From: a virus
Length of the DNA: 61,609 nucleotides
Strand: one strand, 5' to 3'
Virus record (IMG/VR): IMGVR_UViG_3300046616_000205
Location: 1-61,609 of that record
Positions 9,081 to 60,325 of the stretch are shown one piece after another; the first letter of the stretch is position 1; the number at the start of each line of letters is the position of its first letter. The notes beneath the pieces were generated by a model. That model made no database searches. It worked only from the letters and a program-made list of their open reading frames with translations, and was not told the origin of the DNA. Made by a program: the position numbers and the translations under genes.

Positions 9081-9977
9081 ATAACGATTTGGTAACGAAG
9101 GTTTCCAGATTTCACAAAAACTGTGAGGCCTATCAGTCCCGTAGGGCCAGGGGAGGCAGAACCCCCCATAGGGGGTCAAATCGGACATAAGGCACAGAGC
9201 GGACCGTATACATGCAGGTCAGAGGCATGATCAACATGACGGTACATCAGATGTGATCTGACGATGCGTCAGTACTGACCGGTGACACAGTATCAGATGA
9301 TCTTGCAAACATGCAGGCCAGAGGCTTACACACGTCCCCTACCTGATGGATCGTCAGATCTGAGTGTGCGTCAGAAACTGAGGGTGTGTCAGATCTGATG
9401 GTGTGTCAGATGACAGTACATCAGATGATCATGTGTGGTGTAGACCAGTTGGATGAGTGGACTAGACCTCAGTGGCATAGACCAGTGAGGCACAGTGGCA
9501 TAGACCACACGGGCACATAGGCATATGGTCTAGTCCACTAGGGGTATGTGGTATAGACCTCTATTCATGAATGCATAATGTGAATACATGTGTACATGCG
9601 TGTGCATACATGTGTAGGTATGGTGGTATAGACCACTGGTATGCATGTGTGCATGATCCACATGACACACCATCACATGATCATGGTACGTAGTAGGTAC
9701 ATGTACGTGCATATACTACATGTGTGTGTATACATATGGGTATGTGTGCATAGGTATAGTGTGTACATACCGGACATGTGGTACTACACCCATGCATATA
9801 CCCATATATCCACCCACATTACATGATCATGGTCACTGTGTGTAGTGCATAGGTAACTGGTGTGTGTACGGAGCGCCGCTCCCTGAGCCTGAGGGGGCAG
9901 GTTCAACCACCGAACCCACCTCCCAAGATCCAACCCTCTGTACGCCCACCTAACAAGATCCATACCCGCCCATGCAC
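9081..9977. other. Non-coding tract with operator-like repeats and alternating Pu-Py DNA
   Basis: No convincing gene in about 0.9 kb. At 9200-9430 there are many TCAGAT/ATCTGA repeats, some joined as TCAGATCTGA. At 9430-9640 at least six versions of TGGYATAGACCA (an imperfect palindrome) occur. At 9570-9830 the sequence is mostly alternating purine-pyrimidine (CATGTGTACATG, GTGTGTGTATACAT). At 9870 a GC-rich hairpin begins. It may be a replication origin, a packaging or terminal-repeat boundary, or a regulator-binding array. Confidence 0.6.
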
Positions 9978-33814: not shown

Positions 33815-34003
33815 ATGAGCAAGCCTAAAATCAAGGTGGGTACCAAGCCCTTCACTCTGCGGAATCCTGTTCCTCCGGAGTACCGGCGTGAGAACTACAT
33901 GACTGCGATCGCTCGCATGTACGGTGAGGGTATCTGCTCCAAGGAGACGGCCCTGTCCATGGCAGAGCGCGTCGAAGTGATGGTAGGAGAGGGAAGTGAA
34001 TGA
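33815..34003 (+). CDS. Hypothetical basic protein
   Basis: 62 residues, GAGAGGA site. Basic first half (KPKIKVGTKPFTLRNPVPP), helical second half. ATGA overlap with the sigma-factor gene, so the two are co-translated. Confidence 0.6.
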   Translation: MSKPKIKVGTKPFTLRNPVPPEYRRENYMTAIARMYGEGICSKETALSMAERVEVMVGEGSE

Positions 34004-34719
34004 GCGACGATTTCGACAGCCTGGTGGAAGCGGTCCGGCAGAAGGTTTACCGGAAATACCACACCTCTCCTATTGTGGAGGATCTGGTACAGGAGGCAAG
34101 TCTCCAAGCTTGGAGGATGCATGTCGATAACAAAGAAGACCCCTACATTCTCTTCTGGGTACCTAAGCAGGTTGTGAAGTTTCTCGGACCGAAGCCTGCC
34201 CCTTTTACTGGCAGTGCCAGTGGGCACGGAGGTAATCGTCAGACGGTTACCACTACCAATGGGGACGCTAACCGAGAGAAGATCAAGCAAGCCCAACAGA
34301 CATATTTCAGTCTGCATGGAAAGCAGCCGTCCAATGCCGAGATCGGTCGAATGATCGGCATGGAGCCTCGCCGTGTCAGTAAGTACGTCAATCGAGCGAA
34401 CTTCCATCTGGCTGATGCTCCGGAAAACCCGACGATCACTCACATCGACGAATGGTCTGAGGAATTCTCTGGCGGAGACATGTCCTACAATCGTGCGGTG
34501 TCTATTGAGGGTTTTGAAGACACCACGGTTGACCGGCTTCTGGTAGAGGATCTGCTTCCGGAGCTGAAAGAGCGGGCCCGAGAGGTTATCTACCTGCGGT
34601 ATTGGGCAGATATGCCACAAGCAGATATCGCCCGAGAACTGGATATCAGCCCGGCGTACACTCACCGAGTGCATAAAGAAGCCCTGGACGAGTTGCGTGT
34701 ATTGTTGGGAGTGTCTTGA
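34000..34719 (+). CDS. Sigma-70 family RNA polymerase sigma factor
   Basis: 239 residues. Region 2 near residues 20-40 (PIVEDLVQEASLQAW), region 3-like helix-turn-helix near 105-135 (YFSLHGKQPSNAEIGRMIG), and region 4 at about 185-235 (REVIYLRYWADMPQADIARE, then LDISPAYTHRVHKEALDEL). The plan fits FliA/SigB-like alternative sigma factors. It would redirect host RNA polymerase to phage promoters; the TTGAC-17/18-TANANT boxes found across the window are candidate targets. It lies in an operon with small Cys proteins. Confidence 0.85.
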   Translation: MSDDFDSLVEAVRQKVYRKYHTSPIVEDLVQEASLQAWRMHVDNKEDPYILFWVPKQVVKFLGPKPAPFTGSASGHGGNRQTVTTTNGDANREKIKQAQQTYFSLHGKQPSNAEIGRMIGMEPRRVSKYVNRANFHLADAPENPTITHIDEWSEEFSGGDMSYNRAVSIEGFEDTTVDRLLVEDLLPELKERAREVIYLRYWADMPQADIARELDISPAYTHRVHKEALDELRVLLGVS

Positions 34720-35131: not shown

Positions 35132-35313
35132 TGGCCCGACGAGGTTCACTCCATCATAAGGCAAAGCTTGATGACGACAAGGTTCGCGCTATACGCGAGG
35201 AATATGCACAAGGCGGCACTTCGTACTTCAAGCTGGCTATGAAATACGACATCGAATCTACCGACACCATCGGTAAGATCATACGACGAAAGGCCTGGAC
35301 ACACGTATGCTGA
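35131..35313 (+). CDS. Stand-alone HTH domain related to the phage HNH nuclease
   Basis: 60 residues from ATG 35131 (TGATG overlap). AKLDDDKVRAIREEYAQGGT ... DTIGKIIRRKAWTHV aligns with the C-terminus of the HNH nuclease at 8592-9080 (AKMDEEKVLELRKDWAEGAW ... RTIGSILRGELWTHV). This looks like the DNA-recognition domain without its nuclease, either a remnant or a free regulator. Confidence 0.65.
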   Translation: MARRGSLHHKAKLDDDKVRAIREEYAQGGTSYFKLAMKYDIESTDTIGKIIRRKAWTHVC

Positions 35314-35897
35314 CTCTCAAGAAGGAAGACGGCCCCGCTGACCTCGCGGGTGTCACCAAGATGGCTGTCGGTGTCTCCTGGGACCCGACAAGCGGTGCGT
35401 CCGGAGGTGCGATGGGCTTCCTCAAGCGCAAGCGCGGTACGGACCTCGACCTGATCGCCGTTCTGATGGTTGGAAACGAACCGGCGAGGCTTGCGGGTCT
35501 TGACTCGCTGGACCCGCTTCAGAACGGCTCTGTGACCCACTCAGGCGACAACCAGACTGGGCACGGTGCTGGAGACGACGAGACCGTCACAATCGATTTC
35601 GCAGCCGCTAACAGCTCTCCGGTCACCTCGGTCGTGTTCGTGGCTACCGCCTTCAAGAAGGGTTCCGATTTCGGCAAGGCGCGCAACGTCAGCTTCAAGG
35701 TCTACGATGCGAGTGGCGGAAGTTCCGAGCAGGTAGCGGACATCTGGCCTTCGCTGATGGGAAATGCCAATGCCAATGCCGTCGCCAAGGCGACCAAGGG
35801 CGCTGATGGTACGTGGCAGCTCGAAGTCCTGAATGTCCCCGGCAAGATCAGGCAGGGTGACGAGCAGTCGCTTCTGCGCTTCGCCGTCGACAAGTAA
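35307..35897 (+). CDS. TerD-family protein
   Basis: 196 residues. Nearly every TerD landmark is present: MAVGVSWDPTSGASGG, LDLIAVLM, DPLQNGSVTHSGDNQTGHGA, GDDETVTIDF, VVFVATAFKKGSDFGKARNV, QVADIWPSLMGNANANAVAK and DEQSLLRFAVDK. TerD proteins bind calcium through Asp-rich loops and occur in Ter operons linked to tellurite resistance, phage inhibition and stress. Phage copies may counter a host Ter system or act in a related signalling role. Confidence 0.9.
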   Translation: MLTLKKEDGPADLAGVTKMAVGVSWDPTSGASGGAMGFLKRKRGTDLDLIAVLMVGNEPARLAGLDSLDPLQNGSVTHSGDNQTGHGAGDDETVTIDFAAANSSPVTSVVFVATAFKKGSDFGKARNVSFKVYDASGGSSEQVADIWPSLMGNANANAVAKATKGADGTWQLEVLNVPGKIRQGDEQSLLRFAVDK

Positions 35898-35956: not shown

Positions 35957-36478
35957 ATGTCTTTCAATTTGACTGCACTTATTCGGGCCGCTCGTGAAGA
36001 GATCGGCGAACCTGATGTATCTCTAATCGCTAAGCATGTACTTCCACAGATCCCAGAAGATGAACGCGATAGGTTGCTAGAGGCCGCGCTACGGCATCAT
36101 GCCCGTATGTATCTGAGCAGTGAACGTCGTGGTATCTTCGAGGGTGAAGATGAAAACGAGTTCGAAGGTACTGTCATAGAGAGTTCCCCTGTTAAGGGTG
36201 CTCGTAAGCCTCATCTCGGCACGTCGGTGAAAACCGTGCGAGAAGCGTGGAAGGCACGTCTCGATTACGCGTATCACACTGAAGGTGGATACAAGAAGTT
36301 GCGGGACATGACGTACGCAGACTTCATGTTCGCAGTGGACGAGCGAAAGACGATCGCACAGACGAATCTCGCAGAGGCCAAGGTTCTCGAATCGCGTGCT
36401 AAGCTCCTGGAGAAGCACGGAGTAGCTGTCTTTGGAGAGCTTCCAGAGAACGTGCAGAAAACAGAACTGAGTAAGTAA
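35957..36478 (+). CDS. Hypothetical protein, 173 aa, beside the hairpin array
   Basis: 173 residues, CGGAGGA site. Helical: ALIRAAREEIGEPDVSLIAK, LLEAALRHHARMYLSSERRG, then an acidic segment and a basic C-terminal half (TSVKTVREAWKARLDYAYHT, AKVLESRAKLLEKHGVAVFG). Possibly nucleic-acid binding. It is followed directly by the first three hairpins and the Transposase_20-type gene, so a joint role is possible. Function not recognised. Confidence 0.6.
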   Translation: MSFNLTALIRAAREEIGEPDVSLIAKHVLPQIPEDERDRLLEAALRHHARMYLSSERRGIFEGEDENEFEGTVIESSPVKGARKPHLGTSVKTVREAWKARLDYAYHTEGGYKKLRDMTYADFMFAVDERKTIAQTNLAEAKVLESRAKLLEKHGVAVFGELPENVQKTELSK

Positions 36479-36487
36479 CACAAACCC

Positions 36488-36661
36488 CCTTGCAAAGCCA
36501 CTCTATCCGCGAAATCTAAGATCAGTACGCTTTGCAAGGTTCAAAACTTCTTGTTGAACTATTAATCAGACGAAACCCACTCACCGGTCGTTCAACAAGA
36601 TTAAACTCCTTAGCCCAGCTAAATATCTCTCGCAACCTAAGCGATCCACGTTGGGCTAAGG
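36488..36661 (+). repeat. Hairpin array 1: three hairpins with conserved 30-base loops
   Basis: Units at 36488-36539, 36549-36600 and 36608-36661. Each has an 11-12 bp stem (CCTTGCAAAGC/GCTTTGCAAGG; TCTTGTTGAAC/GTTCAACAAGA; CCTTAGCCCAGC/GTTGGGCTAAGG, one G-T) around exactly 30 loop bases. In every loop 11 bases precede and 9 follow the core CGAAATCTAA, CGAAACCCAC or CGCAACCTAA. Stem bases differ between units but stay complementary. The array fills the gap between two coding genes. Confidence 0.85.
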
Positions 36662-36682: not shown

Positions 36683-37399
36683 ATGCAACTCTTCGACCCC
36701 TTTCTAAAAATGAAGGCCGAAAGCGTTGACGATCTGGAACGCATTCGCATCGCCAGTGAAAATCGCCTACGGCAGTTGACCCGAGATACTGTCGACTCAG
36801 ACGGTGAAGAGCGCGGGTACGGTTTGACTCTAGACCACCCTGATGTAGCGATTCAGGCGGGTGTCGTTGAAGGTCTCGTCACACTGGAGAAGCAGGCTAT
36901 TCGAGGTCTGGAGCAGGCACTCAAGAAGCATGCTCTAGGTCCGTGGATTCAGCACCCGTCACAGAAGGGTATCGGTCTCAAAATGGCTGCCCGTCTGTTG
37001 TCGACTGTCGGAGACCCGTACTGGAACACTCTCTACGATCGTCCTCGTAAGTTGAGTGAGTTGTGGCAGTACTGTGGGCATGGGTCCGCTTCTGTTAAGC
37101 GGAAGGGTCAGCAGGTATTCTGGTCACCCGAAGCCAAGATGCGTGTGTATCTCATCGCAGTGAGCATCTTGAAGGTAGGCGCACCTGATCTACGTCAGGT
37201 GTATTACGACCGGAAGGCTGAAACAGAAGGGCGTCCACATGCGGTAGTATGTGTGCGCTGTGGTCCTTCAGGGAAGCCTGCGCAGATAGGTTCACCGTGG
37301 TCGGACGGACACCGTCACGCAGATGCCTTGCGGATCCTCGGTAGGGAATTCCTTCGAGACCTATGGCTTGAAGCCAAACGACTGCACGAAGAGGACTAA
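36683..37399 (+). CDS. IS110-type Transposase_20-domain protein lacking the RuvC-like domain
   Basis: 238 residues; ATG 36683 follows an AAAGGA site. Residues about 95-235 match the C-terminal Transposase_20 domain of IS110/IS1111 transposases: KGIGLKMAARLLSTVGDP (helix-hairpin-helix), RKLSELWQYCGHGSASVKRK, AKMRVYLIAVSILKVGAPDL, RQVYYDRKAE and ALRILGREFLRDLWLEAKRL. The N-terminal DEDD RuvC-like catalytic domain of true IS110 enzymes is missing; instead there is a charged coiled region. No IS ends were found. The gene is bracketed by seven structured hairpins, so an RNA- or DNA-hairpin-binding role is the leading idea. Ser residues in GHGSASVKRKG lie where IS110 carries its catalytic Ser, but activity is unproven. 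Confidence 0.7.
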   Translation: MQLFDPFLKMKAESVDDLERIRIASENRLRQLTRDTVDSDGEERGYGLTLDHPDVAIQAGVVEGLVTLEKQAIRGLEQALKKHALGPWIQHPSQKGIGLKMAARLLSTVGDPYWNTLYDRPRKLSELWQYCGHGSASVKRKGQQVFWSPEAKMRVYLIAVSILKVGAPDLRQVYYDRKAETEGRPHAVVCVRCGPSGKPAQIGSPWSDGHRHADALRILGREFLRDLWLEAKRLHEED

Positions 37400-37405
37400 A
37401 AGTTT

Positions 37406-37646
37406 CCGACTGGAGTTAAGTCCGTTTCGAAACCTAACATCAAGGCGCTCTAGTCGGGATTATCCTGCCTCTCAGACCCCAATGGTCGACCGAAACCTAT
37501 GTTAGGGGCGGTCTGAGAGGCTTACAAATTTCCGGGTAAGACTATTAGTACATCGAAACCTAACCTCGCAGCGTCTTGTCCGGATTTAACTACCCCGCAG
37601 GTCTACCTAACCCGCGAAATCTAGGTTGACTCCGACCTGCGGGGTA
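37406..37646 (+). repeat. Hairpin array 2: four hairpins with conserved 30-base loops
   Basis: Units at 37406-37457, 37467-37521, 37531-37584 and 37591-37646. Stems of 11-13 bp (CCGACTGGAGT/GCTCTAGTCGG with G-T pairs; GCCTCTCAGACC/GGTCTGAGAGGC; TCCGGGTAAGAC/GTCTTGTCCGGA with two G-T; TACCCCGCAGGTC/GACCTGCGGGGTA). Loops are 30, 31, 30 and 30 bases with cores CGAAACCTAA, CGAAACCTAT, CGAAACCTAA and CGAAATCTAG, each followed by 9 bases ending in C. Unit spacing is about 61 bases, as in array 1. Confidence 0.85.
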
Positions 37647-37667: not shown

Positions 37668-39143
37668 ATGCCGTTACCGTTATCGGATTACCAAGAAATC
37701 TCTCGGGACTTTCTTTTAGAAGCCAAGGGTGTAGCCGGGTTATTCGATTCTCCCGGAGTAGGAAAGACAGCCCCGACAATCGTGGCTGCTTGGAAGAAAC
37801 ATGTAGAGACCGGATTACCTGTACTCATTACGTGCCCAGCATACCTAGTGGAAAACTGGGAATGGGAGATCAGTCGGTTTGCGCCCCTTGGAGCTACGGT
37901 CACCCTTGCCAATGGGAGTGGGCCAACTGCCCGACGTGAGGCCTTACAGGCTGGCACAGACTTCGTCATTCAAAGCTACGCCAACTGGTCAGCTAAAGTC
38001 CCTAAGCCGAAAGTCAAGGACGTTGCTTACACGGTTGAAGACCTGGAATCCTTGGCGACTTATGATGCGGCTCAGTCAAAGCCGTCCAAAGCACCAAGGC
38101 CAGGAGACTTCCAATACCCTGATCTCCACACGCGACAGTGGGCCGTCGCGGTATTCGACGAAGGTCATCGCTTACGGGGACGGTCCTCGCAGTGTACTCG
38201 CCATGTGTTTGAGTTGCGGCGCGCACGAAGTGCTAATGTTGCGACCCCGTTATGGATCCTCACCGGCACACCTATCCTCAACAACCCTGGTGACCTCTAT
38301 CCGCTGCTCCACCTGTGGGATAAGAAGCGATTTTCGTCCTACTGGAATTTTGTCGGAGATTTCTGCCGTGTTGTTAAAACGCCGTGGGCGACGGAGGTCG
38401 GGCAGCTTCGTAAGGGAGTGGAGGACGAGTTCCAGGAGCTTGTCGCGTCGTTCGCATTAAGGCGCACGCTTGAGGATATCCCCTCTTTAGCAGGTCTCGA
38501 ACACGTTGAGAAAGATTACTATGTTCGGCTTCCTCCAAGCGTCATCAAATCGATCAATCGCGCACGGGAAGAATATGTCCTTGAACACGAGGACTTGGAC
38601 CGTGCGGAGTTTGTATCTGGTGGTGGAGCGCTCTACGCAAGGCTCCGTCAGCTTGGAACTCTACCTCCCACTGTGGAAAAACCGAAGGTGGAGTTTGTCC
38701 TTGACTTCCTGGAAGACCGCCCCGGACCGGTAGTGGTCTATACCTGGTACAAGGATTCAGCCAAGGGCGTAGCCGACGGCTTGCATAAAAGCAAGCGTCC
38801 CATTACTCTAGTTACTGGCGAAGTACCAACTGCTCGCCGCTCAGCGTTAGTTGACGAGTGGAAGTCCCAGAAGGACGGCATTCTCGTCGCTACGATCTCT
38901 TCTCTCAAGGAAGGGATTTCCCTGATCCAAGCTCAGGATGTGATCTTCCTTGAGCATTCGGAGTTACCTGCCGATCAGGATCAGTGCATTGCAAGGCTCA
39001 AGAGGCGTGGCCAAACCGAGTTAGTCAGGGTCCACCACGTGTGGGCCAGGAATACCCCGGACATGGCCATTCGACGTCACTTGGGTGAGAGGTCCAGTGG
39101 GCTCAAAGTAGCCCTCCGTAGCTGGCTTAAGGAGCCAGAGTGA
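37668..39143 (+). CDS. SNF2-type DNA helicase/translocase
   Basis: 491 residues. Motif I FDSPGVGKTAPTIVAAW (Lys near residue 33), motif II FDEGHRLRGR (DEGH near 164), motif III WILTGTPILNNPGDLY, and in the second RecA lobe a motif V region ILVATISSLKEGISLIQAQ and motif VI QDQCIARLKRRGQ. These place it in the SNF2/DEAD-like superfamily 2 that moves along double-stranded DNA using ATP. It starts 21 bases after hairpin array 2, so the array may lie in its leader. Probably works in phage replication or recombination. Confidence 0.85.
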   Translation: MPLPLSDYQEISRDFLLEAKGVAGLFDSPGVGKTAPTIVAAWKKHVETGLPVLITCPAYLVENWEWEISRFAPLGATVTLANGSGPTARREALQAGTDFVIQSYANWSAKVPKPKVKDVAYTVEDLESLATYDAAQSKPSKAPRPGDFQYPDLHTRQWAVAVFDEGHRLRGRSSQCTRHVFELRRARSANVATPLWILTGTPILNNPGDLYPLLHLWDKKRFSSYWNFVGDFCRVVKTPWATEVGQLRKGVEDEFQELVASFALRRTLEDIPSLAGLEHVEKDYYVRLPPSVIKSINRAREEYVLEHEDLDRAEFVSGGGALYARLRQLGTLPPTVEKPKVEFVLDFLEDRPGPVVVYTWYKDSAKGVADGLHKSKRPITLVTGEVPTARRSALVDEWKSQKDGILVATISSLKEGISLIQAQDVIFLEHSELPADQDQCIARLKRRGQTELVRVHHVWARNTPDMAIRRHLGERSSGLKVALRSWLKEPE

Positions 39144-53335: not shown

Positions 53336-53409
53336 GGCTGCGTGCGCTAAATGGCAAAGCGGTGGGCCTCAAAATCCCATGAATGTCGGTTCAAATCCGA
53401 CCGTAGCTA
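53336..53409 (+). tRNA. tRNA-Leu(CAA)
   Basis: Acceptor GGCTGCG/CGTAGCT, D stem CGCT/AGCG, anticodon loop CTCAAAA, T arm GTCGG TTCAAAT CCGAC. The variable loop has only 5 bases, unlike the long arm usual for Leu tRNAs. The top anticodon-stem pair is C-T. Confidence 0.75.
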
Positions 53410-53410
53410 C

Positions 53411-53842
53411 GTGACATACACAAACTGGAAGTCTCCAGATAACGAAGAGCGTTTACGCAACGCTGTAGCGGAGGCTGCTAGTATTGCAGGTGTCGCTCGA
53501 CTCTTAGGCATTGCACCTAAAGGTGGGAACTACAAGACCCTCAAGCATCACATAACTCGCTTAGGGTTAGACACAGACCATCACACAGGTCAAGCTTGGA
53601 ATCGAGAGAACTACTCAGCACCTAGTAGCTCTCGAAACAAGAACACAATCCGTGCTGCATTAATCCGTAAGCACGGGCATAAGTGCTGGCAGTGTGATCT
53701 ATCCGAGTGGATGGGCCAACCCATTCCTCTGGAGATGGACCACATTGACGGGAACAATTCAAACAACGAGCTGGACAACCTACGGATTCTATGCTGTAAT
53801 TGTCACGCTCAAACTCCGACGTTTCGTAATAAGCGTCGGTGA
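53411..53842 (+). CDS. HNH endonuclease inside the tRNA array
   Basis: 143 residues if GTG 53411 is used; the frame also has ATG 53351, which would read through tRNA-Leu. The start region YTNWKSPDNEERLRNAVAEA and VARLLGIAPKGGNYKTLKHH match HNH proteins of the LAGG-type phage family, and CWQCDLSEW, LEMDHIDGNNSNNELDNLR, CCNCHAQTPTFRN complete the HNH core with zinc Cys. Its stop codon touches the next tRNA. Probably a homing nuclease that moves tRNA genes. Confidence 0.85.
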   Translation: MTYTNWKSPDNEERLRNAVAEAASIAGVARLLGIAPKGGNYKTLKHHITRLGLDTDHHTGQAWNRENYSAPSSSRNKNTIRAALIRKHGHKCWQCDLSEWMGQPIPLEMDHIDGNNSNNELDNLRILCCNCHAQTPTFRNKRR

Positions 53843-53915
53843 GCACACGTAGCCCAATGGCAGAGGCACATCGTTGAGGACGATGTTGTTGGAGGTTCGA
53901 CTCCTCTCGTGTGCA
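53843..53915 (+). tRNA. tRNA-Leu(GAG)
   Basis: Acceptor GCACACG/CGTGTGC, anticodon stem CATCG/CGATG with loop TTGAGGA, T arm GGAGG TTCGACT CCTCT. Variable loop 5 bases. Confidence 0.85.
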
Positions 53916-53917
53916 CT

Positions 53918-53952
53918 GAGACCAGCCTGTCACCCCCCGTCGGGCTGGTCTC
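53918..53952 (+). terminator. Hairpin between tRNAs
   Basis: GAGACCAGCC / GGCTGGTCTC, 10-bp stem with a 15-base loop. First of many inverted repeats between tRNA genes. Confidence 0.55.
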
Positions 53953-53957
53953 TTCAA

Positions 53958-54030
53958 GCGCCTGTGGGCAAAGGGCAAAGCCGTCGGTCTCAGGAACCGA
54001 AGTTTGTGGGTTCGAATCCCACCAGGCGTA
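53958..54030 (+). tRNA. tRNA-Leu(CAG)
   Basis: Acceptor GCGCCTG/CAGGCGT, anticodon stem TCGGT/ACCGA, loop CTCAGGA, T arm GTGGG TTCGAAT CCCAC. Short variable loop. Confidence 0.85.
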
Positions 54031-54126
54031 CGCCGTTTGTGGGTATCGGCATAAACCCTCACTAGTTATAATGGATTCGTTTTCTAGAGACGAGTCTGGT
54101 ACGCCCGGCCGATCACTGGGTGAAAA

Positions 54127-54188
54127 AGCGTGTGTGCTGGGCACATGGCGGTGATGCCGCCGTAGAGGTTCGATCCCTTTACACGTAC
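54127..54188 (+). tRNA. tRNA-like, possible Ile(GAT), very short
   Basis: Acceptor AGCGTGT/ACACGTA (one mismatch), anticodon stem TGGCG/CGCCG with loop GTGATGC, T arm AGAGG TTCGATC CCTTT. Only 62 bases and one variable-loop base, so it may not be a working tRNA. Confidence 0.3.
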
Positions 54189-54412
54189 GAGGGCGAAGGG
54201 TAGCTCCCCAAGCCTTATGGAGGAACTGAAACGCGATGATTTTCGGGTTCATAGCCCGGCTTAGCTAACGGTTCTAAAGCCCCGGATGCATACGGTGGTT
54301 TGTAGCAAGCACAGATGTGCGCCAGCGGCAGGATGAACGTAGTAGGCCCCAAGGGGTTCGAAAGGGATTCTGAGCCAAGGAAGGGTCGGAGCATAACCGA
54401 CTGCTACACGAA

Positions 54413-54490
54413 GGGTCTGATAGGTATCGTCAGAGGTGAAAGCCGCATGCGGAACGCCTTTGCACTCCGGTTCGATCCCGGACAGATCCA
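54413..54490 (+). tRNA. tRNA-like, anticodon not assigned
   Basis: Acceptor GGGTCTG/CAGATCC and T arm TCCGG TTCGATC CCGGA are regular, but the D and anticodon arms between them do not fold normally (it holds the palindrome CCGCATGCGG). 78 bases. Confidence 0.35.
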
Positions 54491-54663
54491 CGAGTTGATA
54501 ATGCTGTGCCACCCAGGAGACTTACTCCACCCCGGCGAGAGCCAGGCCAAATTGGGCAATTGCGTCCAAGCTGGTAGGTATTCCAAGTTCCGGCAAAAGA
54601 CAACAGAAGTGTGGTCGCTTTCAATAGTCGTTCCGGTTTGGCGAGACAAACCGGTCGACTCCC

Positions 54664-54734
54664 GGCCTTTTAGCTCAAAGGTAGAGCACTGGATTGAAGC
54701 CCCAGGGACGGCGGATCGATACCGTCATTGGCCA
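54664..54734 (+). tRNA. tRNA-Phe(GAA)
   Basis: Anticodon stem CTGGA/CCCAG, loop TTGAAGC; T arm GGCGG ATCGATA CCGTC; acceptor GGCCTTT/ATTGGCC with two T-T mismatches in the middle. Confidence 0.65.
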
Positions 54735-54736
54735 CG

Positions 54737-54776
54737 TTGGAGTAGGAACGCATACCTGGCGAGGTACCTACTCCAA
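54737..54776 (+). repeat. Inverted repeat between tRNAs
   Basis: TTGGAGTAGG / CCTACTCCAA, perfect 10-bp arms with a 20-base loop. Confidence 0.6.
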
Positions 54777-54781
54777 TGCCT

Positions 54782-54855
54782 GCTCCGGTGTACGCTGGGT
54801 TGCAACTAGGGTTTTCACCCCTGGCTGGTCGCGGGTTCGATTCCCGTCCGGAGTA
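54782..54855 (+). tRNA. tRNA-Glu(TTC)
   Basis: Acceptor GCTCCGG/CCGGAGT, anticodon stem TAGGG/CCCTG, loop TTTTCAC, T arm GCGGG TTCGATT CCCGT. Confidence 0.8.
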
Positions 54856-54978
54856 CGTGACAACTTAGGAAGTCATGACCTGAGTTAGCAAAGACAGGGC
54901 ATTGGGATTAGGCTCTAGTCACAAAAGTCTCCCATGGGCGGCCCTAGCGATACCTAGGCTCTAGTTAGGGCACCCCAT

Positions 54979-55049
54979 TCCGTAGTGGTGTAATGGCAAC
55001 ACGCCTGCTTGCCAAGCAGGGTACGCGAGTTCGATTCTCGTCTACGGGA
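54979..55049 (+). tRNA. tRNA-Gly(GCC)
   Basis: Acceptor TCCGTAG/CTACGGG, D stem GTGT/ACAC, anticodon stem CCTGC/GCAGG, loop TTGCCAA, T arm GCGAG TTCGATT CTCGT. Confidence 0.9.
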
Positions 55050-55050
55050 C

Positions 55051-55135
55051 TGATTCAGGAAGTACAAGACCGAGCTAGCATCTCGTGAGTGCAGCATCAT
55101 CGGGTTTGCTACCCTACATACGCTGTCCTGAATCA
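55051..55135 (+). repeat. Inverted repeat between tRNAs
   Basis: TGATTCAGGA / TCCTGAATCA enclosing 65 bases. A second pair, ATTCCAGG (55229-55236) / CCTGGAAT (55273-55280), follows. Confidence 0.6.
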
Positions 55136-55284
55136 CCTTAGTCGGCATGTAGATGCCGCTTCGGTTGCTGGCGGAGTACTACGTCAAACACATCGAGAAA
55201 GGGCGGATAGGCCGTCCGCTTTCGAACGATTCCAGGTGGGGCACAACTCAGTAATGGGTCCCGCAAGGGACGCCTGGAATTCAT

Positions 55285-55360
55285 GCCCCTGCGGTAGCAG
55301 TCTGGAGTGCTCGCCTCCCTCTCAAGGAGGAGATCGTCGGTTCAAATCCGATCAGGGGTA
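55285..55360 (+). tRNA. tRNA-Glu(CTC)
   Basis: Acceptor GCCCCTG/CAGGGGT, anticodon stem CCTCC/GGAGG, loop CTCTCAA, T arm GTCGG TTCAAAT CCGAT. Confidence 0.85.
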
Positions 55361-55453
55361 CTGGCCTCACTTTCCCCCGGCTGGGGAGTTGCGGGAGGGT
55401 GAGGCCTCCAAAAGATCATCGTCAGAATCATCTTCATAGTGAGGGCAAATCAC

Positions 55454-56191
55454 ATGACTGTTCTTCTGCACAAGGTCTTGGCTCTGGAGCCGGGTGTTCG
55501 CTCCCGTTCTGCCAAGGCTCTGACTGACCTACACCGCAAGCTCGGTAAGGACCAGCTTCTTTCCGGTCTTGCTCGTGAATACTCTCCGCGTGATGCGGAG
55601 GGTGAAAAGCTTCCGGGTGAAAGCACCCGAGTTCAGGTGAAGGCCGACGAGGCTCTCACGCTCGCCGCTCAGGCTTTCACCGACATGTTCGACACCACTG
55701 CCACCAAGGACTACGGCAATCTCGAAGCCGTGGCAAACGTAGTGGTAGACGGTGAGGTTCTGGTGGAAGGCGCACCGGCCACCTACCTTCTCTGGCTGGA
55801 GAAGCAGCTTGTAGACGTCCACACCTTCGTGGCCAATCTCCCGACGCTGGACCCGGCCAAGAACTGGACCTACGACTCCAACGCGGGTTCGTTCAAGACC
55901 GACACCCTGGTTTCTACCAGGACCAAGAAGGTTCCGCGTAACCACGTCAAGGCCGAGGCGACCGAGCGTCACCCGGCACAGGTCGAGCTGTACTACGAGG
56001 ACGTCATCGTCGGCGACTGGAAGACCGTGCAGTTCAGCGGTGCCCTCCCGGCCGACCGTGTTCGTGCGTTGCTCAGCCGTGTGGAGAAGGTCCAGGACGC
56101 TGTCAAGGCAGCGCGCCAGGAGGCCAACACCGTAGAGGTGGCACAGCAGAAGGTCGGGGACAAGCTCTTCGACTACGTATTCGGCGCGTAA
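55454..56191 (+). CDS. Conserved phage protein inside the tRNA array
   Basis: 245 residues from ATG 55454 (GAGGG site). MTVLLHKVLALEPGVRSRSA, KLGKDQLLSGLAREY, then a long helix-strand body ending VAQQKVGDKLFDYVFGA. C/G-rich third codon positions suggest high expression. The family seems widespread in actinophages but its role is unknown to me. It splits the tRNA array into two parts and follows a GGCCTCAC / GTGAGGCC hairpin. Confidence 0.7.
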   Translation: MTVLLHKVLALEPGVRSRSAKALTDLHRKLGKDQLLSGLAREYSPRDAEGEKLPGESTRVQVKADEALTLAAQAFTDMFDTTATKDYGNLEAVANVVVDGEVLVEGAPATYLLWLEKQLVDVHTFVANLPTLDPAKNWTYDSNAGSFKTDTLVSTRTKKVPRNHVKAEATERHPAQVELYYEDVIVGDWKTVQFSGALPADRVRALLSRVEKVQDAVKAARQEANTVEVAQQKVGDKLFDYVFGA

Positions 56192-56315
56192 AGCCGACGT
56201 CGGACCCGGCAGTGCGATCGGCTTAGGCTGTACCAATCTGGGTGTACGTAACCGGGATTTGAGGGTGGGCCCCTCCCTAAATTCTCCGTAAGTCAGAGCA
56301 CTTACGGAGCGCAAT
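56192..56315. other. Leader upstream of permuted tRNA
   Basis: 124 bases with no gene. TCCGTAAGT / ACTTACGGA forms a hairpin at 56284-56307. Nothing else recognised. Confidence 0.4.
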
Positions 56316-56442
56316 GAGCGCAAGATCGTTTTGAGACTCATCTTCAATGTGGTGACAGTGGTGGTTCGAATCCATCCCCAGGCACAACGAGCCTGGGTAG
56401 CCCAAATGGTAGAGGCAGCCTGTTAAGATCCTCTTTTCGCTC
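56316..56442 (+). tRNA. Permuted tRNA 1 (3' half before 5' half)
   Basis: T arm GGTGG TTCGAAT CCATC (56360-56376) and 3' acceptor CCCAGGC (56377-56383) plus A come first; after a 6-base linker comes the perfectly complementary 5' acceptor GCCTGGG (56391-56397), U8-A9 and D arm. No partner halves exist elsewhere nearby. The flanks pair too: TTAAGAT (56423-56429) with ATCTTCAA (56340-56347), CTC with GAG, CGCTC (56438-56442) with GAGCG (56316-56320). Anticodon not assignable with confidence. Confidence 0.6.
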
Positions 56443-56478
56443 TAAGCTCATCTAGTACGGTGGACGCTGAGTCTAATC

Positions 56479-56578
56479 GTATGAGCTAAAACTGGAAGCC
56501 GCAGGTTCAAATCCTGCTCGGAGCACTCGCGTTCCGATGGTGTAGTGGAAACACGTCCGTTCTTAAGATCGCTCATGC
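56479..56578 (+). tRNA. Permuted tRNA 2 (3' half before 5' half)
   Basis: T arm GCAGG TTCAAAT CCTGC (56501-56517) and 3' acceptor TCGGAGC (56518-56524) plus A precede, after a 5-base linker, the 5' acceptor GTTCCGA (56531-56537; 7 pairs, one T-G) and D arm GTGT/ACAC. The tail GCTCATGC (56571-56578) pairs with the head GTATGAGC (56479-56486). The loop side reads TTCTTAAGATC, close to a Lys(CTT) or Leu(TAA) loop, but the anticodon stem is imperfect. Confidence 0.6.
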
Positions 56579-56671
56579 AACCTGCATCTGTTGTCCGTAT
56601 GCTGTACAATTGCCTGAAAAGCAATCAATTACCTAGCACCCGTCCGCACGGTTAGGTGGGCGGGTGCGCCA

Positions 56672-56742
56672 ATCCCGGAAGTGTTACGGAAGCACGGCAG
56701 TCTCCAAAACTGCGAGCCCAGGTTCGACTCCTGGTCGGGGTG
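56672..56742 (+). tRNA. tRNA-Trp(CCA)
   Basis: Acceptor ATCCCGG/TCGGGGT, anticodon stem GCAGT/ACTGC, loop CTCCAAA, T arm CCAGG TTCGACT CCTGG. Confidence 0.9.
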
Positions 56743-56875
56743 CAAACCAGCGGAAGGGCTTAAGACCTTCTGACTTCTTCGTAGTGTGGCCACCTAAACG
56801 GAGACACGTCTGACCCGGACGTGGGCGGAGTGAAGGCTACTATAGGGACGAGTGCCCGACAGTGCCAGGGTTTAT

Positions 56876-56949
56876 GCTCCGGTAGTTCAGTTGGTTAGAA
56901 CAGCACACTCTTAATGTGCGTGTCGCCGGTTCGAGTCCGGCTCGGAGTA
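56876..56949 (+). tRNA. tRNA-Lys(CTT)
   Basis: Acceptor GCTCCGG/TCGGAGT, anticodon stem GCACA/TGTGC, loop CTCTTAA, T arm GCCGG TTCGAGT CCGGC. Confidence 0.9.
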
Positions 56950-56992
56950 CGCAACACCCCTGGGACGCTTCGGCCTCTTTCTCCCAGGATAT

Positions 56993-57065
56993 GATCCGGT
57001 AGCTCAGTCTGGTCGAGCAGGGGATTCTTAATCCTTGGACGTGGGTTCAAATCCCACCCGGACCA
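56993..57065 (+). tRNA. tRNA-Lys(CTT), second copy
   Basis: Anticodon stem GGGGA/TCCTT, loop TTCTTAA, T arm GTGGG TTCAAAT CCCAC, acceptor GATCCGG/CCGGACC with an A-C mismatch at the second pair. Confidence 0.75.
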
Positions 57066-57167
57066 CTCATTGCCTCTCGCGGGTGATGGTCAGTAGAACA
57101 GCTAGGGAAAAGGCCCGTAGGAGCCTGCCAGCAGCGGCGCAAGGTGACCGCAAGGGCCTTTTCCTGA

Positions 57168-57239
57168 CTCGGCGTAGTTCAAAGGATAGAGCGTCAACCT
57201 CCTAAGTTGAGAATGTGGGTTCGACTCCCGCCGCCGAGA
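57168..57239 (+). tRNA. tRNA-Arg(CCT)
   Basis: Acceptor CTCGGCG/CGCCGAG, anticodon stem TCAAC/GTTGA, loop CTCCTAA, T arm GTGGG TTCGACT CCCGC. Confidence 0.9.
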
Positions 57240-57257
57240 CGTGCTACAATTACACAT

Positions 57258-57332
57258 GCCTCCGTCGCTCACGTTGGTTTGAGCACCATCCTTGTAAGAT
57301 GGCGTACGCGGGTTCGATTCCTGTCGGAGGCT
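57258..57332 (+). tRNA. tRNA-Thr(TGT)
   Basis: Acceptor GCCTCCG/CGGAGGC, anticodon stem CCATC/GATGG, loop CTTGTAA, T arm GCGGG TTCGATT CCTGT. Confidence 0.9.
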
Positions 57333-57410
57333 CGGAGTAAGGGACGTAAGTGGGGCATGCACTCCCCGGCCTTGTCGACGCGTGCGAGATGAGGTTCCCT
57401 TACAAACTTT

Positions 57411-57484
57411 GCCTGATTAGCTCCAGAGGTTAGAGCGCATCCTTGGTAAGGATGAGGCCATGGGTTCGAATCCCATATCAGGCT
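57411..57484 (+). tRNA. tRNA-Thr(GGT)
   Basis: Acceptor GCCTGAT/ATCAGGC, anticodon stem CATCC/GGATG, loop TTGGTAA, T arm ATGGG TTCGAAT CCCAT. Confidence 0.9.
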
Positions 57485-57616
57485 CGGAGAGACTTACCCC
57501 GTAGCCAATCGGGACTGTCATCTCAAGGGAACTACCCTTCCCGCCCGGCACAGTAATGGCTTGCCTTTATACTTGGGTATGAGGTATTCTGGCAACGGTG
57601 ATTAGTGTCGGTCCAA

Positions 57617-57689
57617 GCGCGCGTCGTCTAGCGGCTAAGGCGGCTGCCTTACAAGCAGCTTATCGTAGGTTCGAGTCCTACCGCGCGTA
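57617..57689 (+). tRNA. tRNA-Val(TAC)
   Basis: Acceptor GCGCGCG/CGCGCGT, anticodon stem GCTGC/GCAGC, loop CTTACAA, T arm GTAGG TTCGAGT CCTAC. Confidence 0.9.
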
Positions 57690-57764
57690 CGTTGAGGACG
57701 AGCAGAGAAGTCAAGCGGTGTGTGACGCGGCGGCTAACGTGATAAGCCTTGACCAGCCCCTCAT

Positions 57765-57835
57765 GCAGGTGTAGTTTAATGGTAGAACAACTGACTTCCA
57801 ATCAGTTAACGCCGGTTCGATTCCGGTCACCTGCT
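57765..57835 (+). tRNA. tRNA-Gly(TCC)
   Basis: Acceptor GCAGGTG/CACCTGC, anticodon stem ACTGA/TCAGT, loop CTTCCAA, T arm GCCGG TTCGATT CCGGT. Confidence 0.9.
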
Positions 57836-57900
57836 CTGGTCCCAGTTTCACTTTAATTCAATTAGCCCTGAAATGAGTGTTTGTCGGCTGGGACTTTCAA

Positions 57901-57971
57901 TCTCCTATAGCACAATGGCAGTGCGACCGGTTGTTACCCGGTTTATCTTGGTTCGATCCCAGGTGGGAGAG
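57901..57971 (+). tRNA. tRNA-Asn(GTT)
   Basis: Acceptor TCTCCTA/TGGGAGA, anticodon stem ACCGG/CCGGT, loop TTGTTAC, T arm CTTGG TTCGATC CCAGG. The HNH gene starts 5 bases later. Confidence 0.85.
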
Positions 57972-57976
57972 CGCAA

Positions 57977-58267
57977 ATGGCAATACCAAATGCAGGTGCA
58001 GTAGCTGCTTGGCGGCGACGTACTAAAGCTCGATTAGTCGCACATCATGGTGGCAAATGCTTAGACTGTGGTTATGAAGGCCCACCCTTCATGTTTGACT
58101 TCGATCACCGGAATCCGGAAGAGAAGTTATTTGGAATTGGGGCCAATGGCTTTAGTCGCAAGTATGAGGTACAATTAGCCGAGTCGCTAAAATGCGACTT
58201 ACTGTGTGCCAACTGCCATCGATTTCGAACACACAAGCAACGCTGCAAAGGTTGCGAGTATTGTTGA
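57977..58267 (+). CDS. HNH endonuclease-like protein inside the tRNA array
   Basis: 96 residues. KCLDCGYEGPPFMFDFDHRN carries a CxxC and the HNH-type DFDHRNP; LLCANCHRFRTHKQ gives the second zinc knuckle (CxxCHR). Lies between tRNA-Asn and tRNA-Gln with almost no spacer, as expected for a homing nuclease gene inserted beside tRNAs. Confidence 0.75.
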   Translation: MAIPNAGAVAAWRRRTKARLVAHHGGKCLDCGYEGPPFMFDFDHRNPEEKLFGIGANGFSRKYEVQLAESLKCDLLCANCHRFRTHKQRCKGCEYC

Positions 58268-58271
58268 TCAA

Positions 58272-58342
58272 TCTCCCATAGTGTATTGGAAGCACGCGAG
58301 CGTCTGGTGCTCGAAGGCTAGGATCGTTACCTGGTGGGAGAG
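58272..58342 (+). tRNA. tRNA-Gln(CTG)
   Basis: Acceptor TCTCCCA/TGGGAGA, nearly the same as tRNA-Asn; anticodon stem CGAGC/GCTCG, loop GTCTGGT; T arm CTAGG ATCGTTA CCTGG. Confidence 0.8.
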
Positions 58343-58403
58343 CGTTGTGATCACAAAAGTCGAATAGAGCCTATACTATGATTTAGGTAGTCGTTCGGCG
58401 CCT

Positions 58404-58475
58404 CTGGTACGAGGAAGATGGTAATCCGCCTGGTTTGGGACCAGGATTAACCGAGTTCGATTCTCGGGTACCAGA
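58404..58475 (+). tRNA. tRNA-Pro(TGG)
   Basis: Acceptor CTGGTAC/GTACCAG, anticodon stem CCTGG/CCAGG, loop TTTGGGA, T arm CCGAG TTCGATT CTCGG. Confidence 0.9.
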
Positions 58476-58537
58476 CGGCCACCTAAGCAGGGTTACCCCG
58501 TGCCTGCGATGTCTACGGAATAAGACAGTGGCGTTTT

Positions 58538-58611
58538 GCCCTAGTAGCACAACGGATTGGTGCGCCTGACTACGGATCAGGAGGTTGCAGGTTCGAATCC
58601 TGTCTGGGGTA
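58538..58611 (+). tRNA. tRNA-Arg(ACG)
   Basis: Acceptor GCCCTAG/CTGGGGT, anticodon stem CCTGA/TCAGG, loop CTACGGA, T arm GCAGG TTCGAAT CCTGT. Confidence 0.9.
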
Positions 58612-58687
58612 CGAGACCGGAGGTCGGAGGTTCGAGTCCTTCTAGCTCGCAAGGCTATAGCTCAGTTGGTAGAGCGCCGGTCGTATT
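58610..58687 (+). tRNA. Permuted tRNA 3 (3' half before 5' half), Ala-like acceptor
   Basis: Fills the gap between tRNA-Arg(ACG) and tRNA-Tyr. Order: ACCGG (58616-58620), variable AGGTC, T arm GGAGG TTCGAGT CCTTC, 3' acceptor TAGCT, 5-base linker, 5' acceptor GGCTA, D arm GCTC/GAGC, then CCGGT (58677-58681), which pairs exactly with ACCGG. The tail CGTA also pairs with the head TACG. One acceptor pair is G-T where G3-U70, the Ala identity pair, would lie. Its ends lie in the anticodon loop. Confidence 0.6.
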
Positions 58688-58772
58688 GGGTGATCGCCGG
58701 AGTTGGAGAGCCGGAGCGGGCTGTAACCCCGTGATCTTGAATGGTTAGGCGGTTCGAATCCGTCATCACCCA
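58688..58772 (+). tRNA. tRNA-Tyr(GTA)
   Basis: Acceptor GGGTGAT/ATCACCC, anticodon stem GCGGG/CCCGT, loop CTGTAAC, long variable arm, T arm GGCGG TTCGAAT CCGTC. Confidence 0.85.
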
Positions 58773-58873
58773 CGAGGCAACTATCTAATCCGGGAATTGC
58801 TCCACGCGTGGAGCCAGCCGGTAAGGCCGTCAGCCATAAGAGGCGCGTCTCTTGATGCTGTAAAGGTAGTTAC

Positions 58874-58947
58874 TCGCCCGTAGCTTAGTCGGTGAAAGCG
58901 CGTCCCTGATAAGGATGAGATCGCTGGTTCAAATCCAGTCGGGCGGA
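58874..58947 (+). tRNA. tRNA-Ile(GAT)
   Basis: Acceptor TCGCCCG/CGGGCGG, anticodon stem CGTCC/GGATG, loop CTGATAA, T arm GCTGG TTCAAAT CCAGT. Confidence 0.9.
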
Positions 58948-58951
58948 CTTT

Positions 58952-59034
58952 GGAAAGTATGGTCGCAGGTCGACCACCTTGGTTGCTAGCCAGGGACAGG
59001 GTAATGCCTGGGGGTTCGAGTCCTCTGCTTTCCG
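58952..59034 (+). tRNA. tRNA-Ser(GCT)
   Basis: Acceptor GGAAAGT/GCTTTCC, anticodon stem CTTGG/CCAGG, loop TTGCTAG, long variable arm, T arm GGGGG TTCGAGT CCTCT. Confidence 0.85.
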
Positions 59035-59232
59035 CTTGTGGGTCCATATGGAAGCTGATGATGGATGGCAGCGAGTGCGCGCTTAGCTGTGAACCTAGGT
59101 TAGTGATAGGAAAACCACCTATCCGCCCACATACCGTTTGCGGGTCCCTCTGGGATGCAATACTCTATATGGCATTCTAATCTGGCCAGATAGGAATGTA
59201 CGAGAAAGTAACGCGTCGCCCGCAATCCACTT

Positions 59233-59306
59233 GGCCATTGAGCTTGCTGTGTGTAAGCGACTGCCTGCAAAGCAGTTTTGGATGGGTTCGATTCCCATAA
59301 TGGCCT
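59233..59306 (+). tRNA. tRNA-Cys(GCA)
   Basis: Acceptor GGCCATT/AATGGCC, anticodon stem ACTGC/GCAGT, loop CTGCAAA, T arm ATGGG TTCGATT CCCAT. The 198 bases before it hold no recognisable gene, only a GATAGG/CTATC-type hairpin. Confidence 0.9.
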
Positions 59307-59376
59307 CTGTACCGAAGCCGGATATCTAGCGGTGACGGACTCAGGACTAGATACTACTGAGTTCACGGTACTTTGA

Positions 59377-59446
59377 GACTCCGTAGCCCAAGTGAGAGGC
59401 GCGGCGGATATGCTAAGAGTTGCTGGTGAAAACCCAGCCGGGGTCT
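59377..59446 (+). tRNA. Irregular tRNA-like sequence
   Basis: Acceptor GACTCCG/CGGGGTC, U8-A9, D-arm-like GCCCAAGTGAGAGGC and a GCTGG/CCAGC arm with the atypical loop TGAAAAC. The middle does not form an anticodon stem, so this is a tRNA remnant or another rearranged gene. Confidence 0.35.
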
Positions 59447-59450
59447 CTAT

Positions 59451-59535
59451 GGAGTCGCTGCCATTGGCGCGGTACACTGTCTAGAAAACAGCTGGGGTGT
59501 CAAAGCCCTTGGGGGTTCAACTCCCTCCGGCTCCG
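59451..59535 (+). tRNA. tRNA-Ser(AGA)
   Basis: Acceptor GGAGTCG/CGGCTCC, anticodon loop CTAGAAA on a 4-pair stem, long variable arm, T arm GGGGG TTCAACT CCCTC. Confidence 0.8.
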
Positions 59536-59557
59536 CTGGATAAACAAATCCATAGTT

Positions 59558-59632
59558 GTGACTGAAGCTGAAGTGGTCGAGGCGCCGCGTTGTGGTCGCG
59601 GTAATGAGCGGGTTCGAGTCCCGTCAGTCACC
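59558..59632 (+). tRNA. tRNA-His(GTG)
   Basis: Acceptor GTGACTG/CAGTCAC, anticodon stem CCGCG/CGCGG, loop TTGTGGT, T arm GCGGG TTCGAGT CCCGT, discriminator C. The base before position 1 is T, so the extra 5' G of His tRNAs is not encoded in the usual place. Confidence 0.85.
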
Positions 59633-59766
59633 CCAGTAGTGCCTAGGCTTCTTCAATTCCTAGGAAGAGTCGGCTAGCCCGTGCCTTTCGACGTAAACGG
59701 TACTCGCGGGAGAAATCCACCGAGGTACAACCCCATCGTGTCGTTAGTCTAAGCGAGGACTCGAAT

Positions 59767-59838
59767 GGGCGATTAGTGTTAATGGGAGCACGCGAGTATG
59801 GCATACTCGTAGAGCGGGTTCGAACCCCGCATTGTCCA
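59767..59838 (+). tRNA. tRNA-Ala(GGC)
   Basis: Acceptor GGGCGAT/ATTGTCC with G3-T70, anticodon stem CGAGT/ACTCG, loop ATGGCAT, T arm GCGGG TTCGAAC CCCGC. Confidence 0.85.
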
Positions 59839-59970
59839 CAAAAGCAAACCCTAAACCTCCGTAGGCAAACCCTGAGCCTGTGACGGAGTTAGGCGGGACT
59901 TCCCCTTCTAGACAGCGGAAGTCGCTTTAGATGGTTGCAGACTTAAAGGGCCTCTGCTATCATCGATCTT

Positions 59971-60041
59971 GGGCTGTGAGATGTACTGGTTGCATTCTTC
60001 CCTTGCAAGGAAGCTGAGGGGTTCGATTCCCACACGGTCCA
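59971..60041 (+). tRNA. tRNA-Ala(TGC)
   Basis: Acceptor GGGCTGT/ACGGTCC with G3-T70, anticodon stem CTTCC/GGAAG, loop CTTGCAA. The T stem is weaker than in its neighbours. Confidence 0.8.
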
Positions 60042-60075
60042 CGCGTTGCCGTCTGTTCGACGTAAAGAACACCAT

Positions 60076-60151
60076 GCATCTGTAGCTTAGTCTGGTCCAA
60101 AGCGCCACCCTGTCAAGGTGGAGAGCGAGGGTTCAAATCCCTTCAGGTGCG
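60076..60151 (+). tRNA. tRNA-Asp(GTC)
   Basis: Acceptor GCATCTG/CAGGTGC, anticodon stem CCACC/GGTGG, loop CTGTCAA, T arm GAGGG TTCAAAT CCCTT. Confidence 0.9.
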
Positions 60152-60153
60152 CC

Positions 60154-60227
60154 GGTCCTATAACTCAGTCGGTCAGAGTGCTTCCCTCATAAGGAAGAAG
60201 CCACCGGTTCGATTCCGGTTAGGACTA
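60154..60227 (+). tRNA. tRNA-Met(CAT), elongator-type
   Basis: Acceptor GGTCCTA/TAGGACT, anticodon stem CTTCC/GGAAG, loop CTCATAA, T arm ACCGG TTCGATT CCGGT. A CAT anticodon could also be modified for Ile. Confidence 0.85.
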
Positions 60228-60228
60228 C

Positions 60229-60301
60229 TGCGCGGTAGTGGAGTTCGGTTCCATGCGGGGCTCATAATCCCGAGACACCGGTTCGAATCCGGTCTGCGCC
60301 A
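60229..60301 (+). tRNA. tRNA-fMet(CAT), initiator-like
   Basis: First acceptor pair is a T-C mismatch (initiator hallmark), D arm TGGAG TTCGGTT CCA like actinobacterial initiators, anticodon stem CGGGG/TCCCG, loop CTCATAA. CCA follows directly (60302-60304), the only clear encoded CCA in the array. Confidence 0.75.
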
Positions 60302-60325
60302 CCACTCACAAAAGAGAGGTCCCAC

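What the first reader, a model, noticed from the sequence alone, without database searches (positions are those of the whole stretch)
36488..36661. Array of three hairpins with covarying stems and a fixed 11-10-9 loop grammar
Seen directly: three units about 60 bases apart. Each has an 11-12 bp stem whose bases differ from unit to unit but stay complementary (including G-T pairs), and a loop of exactly 30 bases with 11 bases, then a core of type CGAAACCTAA, then 9 bases ending in C. Compensatory change in stems with an invariant loop core means the folded RNA or single-stranded DNA form is selected. It occupies a 200-base gap in a genome that otherwise overlaps its genes. Not a CRISPR array, attC site or terminator of known type.
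Basis: seen in the sequence. Interest (0 to 1): 0.95.

Follow-up and report, generated by a model that had tools for sequence, protein, structure and literature searches.

The report
Phage stem-loop guide RNA array (TIGR-TasA)
The hairpins are short two-part guide RNAs of a recently described RNA-guided DNA-targeting system, TIGR-Tas, carried by actinobacterial phages; the system is known, but here it has a constant, unreported partner gene and fast-changing guides in well-studied mycobacteriophages.

Summary
All 11 aligned stem pairs form in all seven units, and 10 of the 11 show changes on both sides. The loop is not 11-10-9. It reads box C (CYA), 9-nt spacer A, CG-NNNN-YA loop repeat (box D plus box C), 9-nt spacer B, box D (C|G). 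The enclosed gene is a Tas protein: NCBIfam TIGR_Tas_endo, 188.6 bits against a cut-off of 100. Its profile matches TasR, PDB 9MTY, at E=2e-28, and its predicted fold hits only TasR/TasH structures at the top. It has no nuclease domain, so it is TasA. This is a stem-loop TIGR-TasA system, a class described in 2025 (PMC12045711), so the category is known. New in what I could read: the same array lies at nearly every one of 72 related actinophage loci, always on the tasA strand by covariance model. An uncharacterised gene (phrog_4604) sits just upstream in 71 of 72. In near-identical cluster A mycobacteriophages the 9-mers differ by 53-66% while stems and boxes differ by 0-9%. I found no convincing target.

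The parts
36488..36539 (+). stem-loop TIGR unit 1; spacer A CTCTATCCG 36501-36509, loop repeat CGAAATCTA 36510-36518, spacer B AGATCAGTA 36519-36527
36549..36600 (+). unit 2; spacer A TTAATCAGA 36562-36570, loop repeat CGAAACCCA 36571-36579, spacer B CTCACCGGT 36580-36588
36608..36661 (+). unit 3; spacer A AATATCTCT 36622-36630, loop repeat CGCAACCTA 36631-36639, spacer B AGCGATCCA 36640-36648
36683..37399 (+). tasA: Nop-domain (IS110 Transposase_20-like) Tas protein without nuclease domain, 238 aa
   Evidence: NCBIfam NF052498 188.6 bits; PDB profile hits 9MTY TasR 2e-28 and TasH 1.5e-15; AF2 pLDDT 94, fold hits TasR/TasH; phrog_4285
37404..37459 (+). unit 4; spacer A AGTCCGTTT 37419-37427, loop repeat CGAAACCTA 37428-37436, spacer B ACATCAAGG 37437-37445
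37467..37521 (+). unit 5 (31-nt loop); spacer A ATGGTCGAC 37482-37490, loop repeat CGAAACCTA 37491-37499, spacer B TGTTAGGGG 37500-37508
37531..37584 (+). unit 6; spacer A TTAGTACAT 37545-37553, loop repeat CGAAACCTA 37554-37562, spacer B ACCTCGCAG 37563-37571
37591..37646 (+). unit 7; spacer A CCTAACCCG 37606-37614, loop repeat CGAAATCTA 37615-37623, spacer B GGTTGACTC 37624-37632
35957..36478 (+). conserved partner gene of unknown function (phrog_4604), 173 aa, predicted mostly helical
   Evidence: family found upstream of tasA, same strand, in 71 of 72 loci; AF2 pLDDT 88; no PDB fold match

Best explanation
This is a stem-loop TIGR-TasA system in an actinobacterial phage. Shown here: seven hairpins in the tig-unit format flank a nuclease-free Tas gene, and homologous arrays flank homologous Tas genes across actinophages. 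Inferred from the published family: the array is transcribed with the surrounding genes and cut in the linkers, so each hairpin becomes one guide RNA. A symmetric TasA dimer grips it, one protomer on the box C/box D pair at the top of the stem and the other on the same pair inside the loop repeat. Spacers A and B then pair with opposite strands of an 18-20 bp DNA site. Without a nuclease, binding and bending would block transcription or replication, or recruit something. The phrog_4604 protein is a candidate co-factor. The fast-changing guides suggest targets that themselves change, most plausibly competing phages. Target and function are not shown. The confidence given is for the identity (TIGR-TasA guide array); for the rival-phage role alone I would say about 0.4.
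For: Protein: NCBIfam TIGR_Tas_endo 188.6 bits against cut-off 100; profile to TasR 9MTY 2e-28 and TasH 1.5e-15 (9MTY confirmed as TasR); all 11 Foldseek hits at E<=0.001 are TasR or TasH, followed by IS110 recombinases. RNA: covarying stems with fixed loop; units found at relatives' tas loci, 427 on the tas strand against 24 on the other, 113 of 113 covariance-model hits on +; commonest format 9-9-9 with a 30-nt loop, 338 units. Box C changes in both positions together: CCA at the stem edge in 385 of 435 units, mostly relatives, and mostly CCA in their loop repeats, but mostly CTA at both in the window; the paper reports such covariation. Guides: near-identical phages differ by 53-66% in the 9-mers and 0-9% in stems and boxes. 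The published class has the same anatomy.
Against: No transcription, processing or binding data for this locus. No convincing target in the phage's own genome, in other related phage records, among isolate phages by BLAST of 12 candidate 18-mers, in IMG/VR or in 149 genomes of a mycobacterial genus. One arrangement outside the published pairing mode (B directly followed by A) was in slight excess in own genomes (8 against 1.4) but not across genomes. Box D is CG here, not the UG of TasR.
Confidence: 0.94

Rival explanations
1. Regulatory RNA hairpins or processing sites of an operon, with no guide role; the Nop-like protein is an RNA-binding regulator.
For: Units are co-directional with the genes and, in the window, sit in untranslated gaps; the protein lacks a nuclease domain.
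Against: Two 9-nt hypervariable stretches at fixed positions between conserved boxes and 9-9-9 regularity across loci have no reason in a pure regulatory hairpin; the protein is Tas by family and fold.
Confidence: 0.04
2. Remnant of an IS110-type element: the hairpins are bridge-RNA relics and the gene a decayed transposase.
For: PHROGs labels the family transposase; Transposase_20 matches 5 of 24 members weakly.
Against: Conserved in 72 loci; no DEDD domain; tandem one-loop units instead of a single two-loop bridge RNA; nearest folds are TasR/TasH, with IS110 recombinases weaker at E 0.025-0.056.
Confidence: 0.01
3. It is TIGR-TasA, but used to regulate the phage's own genes rather than to act on rival phages (a rival on function, not on identity).
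For: No nuclease; spacers show a small excess of same-strand B-A matches in their own genomes (8 against 1.4 expected).
Against: The excess is one of 26 arrangements tested, does not follow the two-strand pairing rule of the family, and BLAST of several such 18-mers found nothing relevant; guides change fast between near-identical phages, unlike a regulator of conserved own genes.
Confidence: 0.3

Closest known systems
Stem-loop TIGR array with TasA, Peromyscus gut contig (Faure et al. 2025, PMC12045711)
   Same: Nuclease-free Tas, several stem-loop sub-arrays around the gene, variable palindromic stems, two short spacers each between box C and box D
   Different: Here the loop repeat is short and near-constant (about 9 nt), spacers are 9/9, box D is CG, and a phrog_4604 gene lies upstream in 71 of 72 loci; I could not see the sequences of the published array, so box and loop differences from it are not measured
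Dual-repeat TIGR-TasR/TasH (9MTY; 21KL and related entries)
   Same: Nop-domain protein homologous over the whole domain; box C CCA/CYA; 9-nt spacers; loop repeat
   Different: No RuvC or HNH domain; stems replace the edge repeat; box D CG rather than UG
IS110 recombinase with bridge RNA
   Same: Shared Nop/Transposase_20 RNA-binding fold (ranks 12-13)
   Different: No DEDD catalytic domain, no single bridge RNA, no element ends seen
Box C/D snoRNP (Nop5)
   Same: Distant fold relation, two-guide RNA logic
   Different: K-turn, L7Ae and fibrillarin not seen; weak structural score (ranks 15, 22)

Membership tests
TIGR-Tas | Tas protein with Nop domain | tested here: met
   NCBIfam NF052498 above cut-off; TasR/TasH by profile and fold
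TIGR-Tas | Adjacent array of tandem units with two short spacers | tested here: met
   7 units flanking the gene, 9+9 nt spacers; units at relatives
TIGR-Tas | Box C and box D flank both spacers, same in edge and loop | tested here: met
   CG at both D positions in all 7; CYA-type box C at both, edge exceptions TTA (unit 4) and CCC or, with a bulge, CCA (unit 5) (sequence)
Stem-loop class of TIGR | Palindromic variable stems in place of edge repeats | tested here: met
   covariation
TasA subtype | No nuclease domain | tested here: met
   238 aa; the Tas/Nop match spans residues 9-231
TIGR-Tas | Array transcribed and processed into guide RNAs bound by Tas | not testable with these tools
   needs RNA sequencing
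TIGR-Tas | Spacers A and B direct binding to opposite DNA strands | tested here: inconclusive
   no target found
IS110 element | DEDD RuvC-like recombinase domain | tested here: not met
   absent; protein is Nop domain only
CRISPR array | Near-identical repeats with long spacers and cas genes | tested here: not met
   stems differ in every unit; no Cas family match for tasA or the partner gene

The most novel reading that the evidence does not exclude
Actinophage TIGR-TasA is a two-protein subtype: TasA plus a dedicated phrog_4604 partner that supplies the effect or helps renew guides. The guides turn over within preserved stems, giving phages an RNA-guided weapon against competing phages.
Probability: 0.3. 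Interest if true: 0.85.

Novelty: new member of a known kind. Interest (0 to 1): 0.6.

Why it matters
What nuclease-free TasA does, what it targets and how TIGR spacers are renewed are stated open questions (PMC12045711). The same system sits in about 80 sequenced phages, mostly of M. smegmatis, where phage knock-outs, RNA sequencing and co-infection are routine. Near-identical phages that differ mainly in their guides are a natural experiment on guide turnover. A near-constant neighbour gene gives a concrete second component to test.

Tried and rejected
Rfam: only tRNAs in the window. Pfam: nothing for the window's tasA or partner. Self targets in the window: at chance. Targets among 72 loci, in own genomes and across 48 records including the window: no excess for the published geometry. 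A same-strand B-A excess in own genomes (8 against 1.4) is kept as unexplained; it did not hold across genomes and BLAST of such 18-mers found only a chance Klebsiella phage hit. A start-codon idea (B followed by the reverse complement of A) gave no match. IMG/VR exact scans of five window units and two mycobacteriophage units gave 0-8 hits, those examined being unrelated genes or haloarchaeal viruses. Mycobacterial-genus genomes: 2 and 0 of 149. Partner as ParB: no sequence or fold support.

Full report
What is there. Seven hairpins lie on the + strand of the window: three at 36488-36661 and four at 37404-37646, on either side of one gene at 36683-37399. Stems are 11-13 bp and differ in every unit; loops are 30 nt, in one case 31. 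Dinucleotide shuffles of the whole window never place more than two such hairpins within 1.2 kb, against seven here. Aligned in register, all 77 stem cells pair, 10 of 11 positions show changes on both sides, and shuffled or slid partners lose this. Single-strand RNA folding recovers every stem.

Reading the loop. From the last base of the 5' stem the order is: C-Y-A (box C), nine variable bases (A), C-G-N-N-N-N-Y-A (box D, short linker, box C), nine variable bases (B), then C|G, where G opens the 3' stem (box D). The closing stem pair is therefore the box C/box D pair. In the 72 related loci and the window the commonest format is exactly 9-9-9 with a 30-nt loop, 338 of the strictly called units.

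The gene. P0001 (238 aa) matches the NCBI family 'TIGR-Tas system RNA-guided endonuclease' (NF052498) at 188.6 bits, cut-off 100. A profile of 24 relatives matches TasR (9MTY) at 2e-28 and TasH at 1.5e-15; the paper gives 9MTY as TasR. The AlphaFold model (pLDDT 94) has TasR and TasH as its eleven best solved relatives, then IS110 recombinases, with Nop5 far weaker. The match covers residues 9-231 of 238, so there is no room for RuvC or HNH: it is TasA, despite the family's 'endonuclease' name. PHROGs calls it 'transposase', which is misleading.

Published class. Faure et al. [quoted passage not shown] one stem-loop TasA array was shown to be expressed and processed. The window locus meets each sequence-level criterion. 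The supplement could not be read, so whether these phages are listed there is unknown. Literature searches found no paper on this system in actinophages, within an open-licence library only.

Relatives. tblastn finds the protein in 83 isolate phages: 76 Mycobacterium, 5 Gordonia, 1 Rhodococcus, 1 Arthrobacter. Scans of IMG/VR and GTDB genomes gave 64 more loci, some of them the same phages. Strict unit calls total 427 on the tas strand and 24 on the other; two of the 72 loci (L060, L063) had none by that caller. A covariance model from the seven window units has 113 hits at E<=0.05, seven of them the units it was built from, all on the tas strand. In that alignment, which leans towards the model, 98.2% of cells pair and the covariation score is 1.03 against 0.24 shuffled.

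Units inside tasA. In several loci (for example L006 and L007, 2903-3020) units lie in an in-frame insertion of the tasA gene itself. An automatic count put 57 units in 29 loci inside the tas match, but part of that count comes from fragmentary tas matches and should be treated as an upper bound.

Partner gene. The gene before the array (35957-36478, phrog_4604) has a relative on the same strand, upstream of tasA with usually only the array between, in 71 of 72 loci. In the phage collection the family occurs in 80 records, nearly the same genera and numbers as tasA; I did not compare the lists record by record. It has no Pfam, NCBIfam, PADLOC or PDB relative that I would credit; fold matches in viral models are uncharacterised phage proteins, at least one of them (Rich) of the same family. 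[quoted passage not shown] I read the partner as a likely second component; that is inference from co-occurrence.

Hypervariable guides. Among 13 distinct sequences from near-identical cluster A mycobacteriophages, spacers differ by 0.53-0.66 per site pairwise, while stems and boxes differ by 0-0.09 and flanking coding ends by 0-0.024. Units also re-assort: one phage (L027) shares unit 1 with L019 and unit 2 with L008. This is what guides under diversifying selection or exchange would show. The mechanism of renewal is not shown.

Targets. From the paper's cut rule I derived that one strand should read A, 0-2 bases, reverse complement of B. Tests in the window, in loci, in 48 whole or near-whole records including the window, in isolate phages, IMG/VR and mycobacterial-genus genomes gave nothing above controls. 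A same-strand B-A arrangement was over-represented in own genomes (8 against 1.4), the best of 26 arrangements tried; it is post hoc, contradicts the known pairing mode and did not extend across genomes. It remains unexplained.

Verdict. Identity as a stem-loop TIGR-TasA locus: very likely. Function: inferred RNA-guided DNA binding without cutting, target unknown. Novelty: new member of a known kind, with a possible two-protein subtype.

Noticed in passing
window 9343-9868: A roughly 500-bp GT-rich stretch with several GTGGYATAGACC-type direct repeats and CATGTGTGCAT-type near-palindromes; perhaps an origin or a regulatory region.
   Followed up: partly
window 53336-60304: Cluster of 30 tRNA genes covering most amino acids, two of them tRNA-Met.
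   Followed up: no
window 35307-35897: TerD-domain protein just upstream of the partner gene (Pfam 1.3e-13).
   Followed up: no
window 37668-39143: SNF2-type helicase directly after the last hairpin; partial similarity to helicases of defence systems, probably general.
   Followed up: no
window 34000-34719: Phage-encoded sigma-70-like factor.
   Followed up: no
L006 2904-3020, L007 2903-3020: Guide units lie inside an in-frame insertion of the tasA reading frame, so one RNA would be both message and guide precursor.
   Followed up: partly
own genomes of L021, L022, L023, L028, L043, L044, L049, L056 (records G013, G014, G015, G020, G031, G032, G035, G042): 18-mers of the form spacer B followed directly by spacer A occur on one strand of the own genome with 1-2 mismatches more often than mispaired controls; may be chance.
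   Followed up: partly
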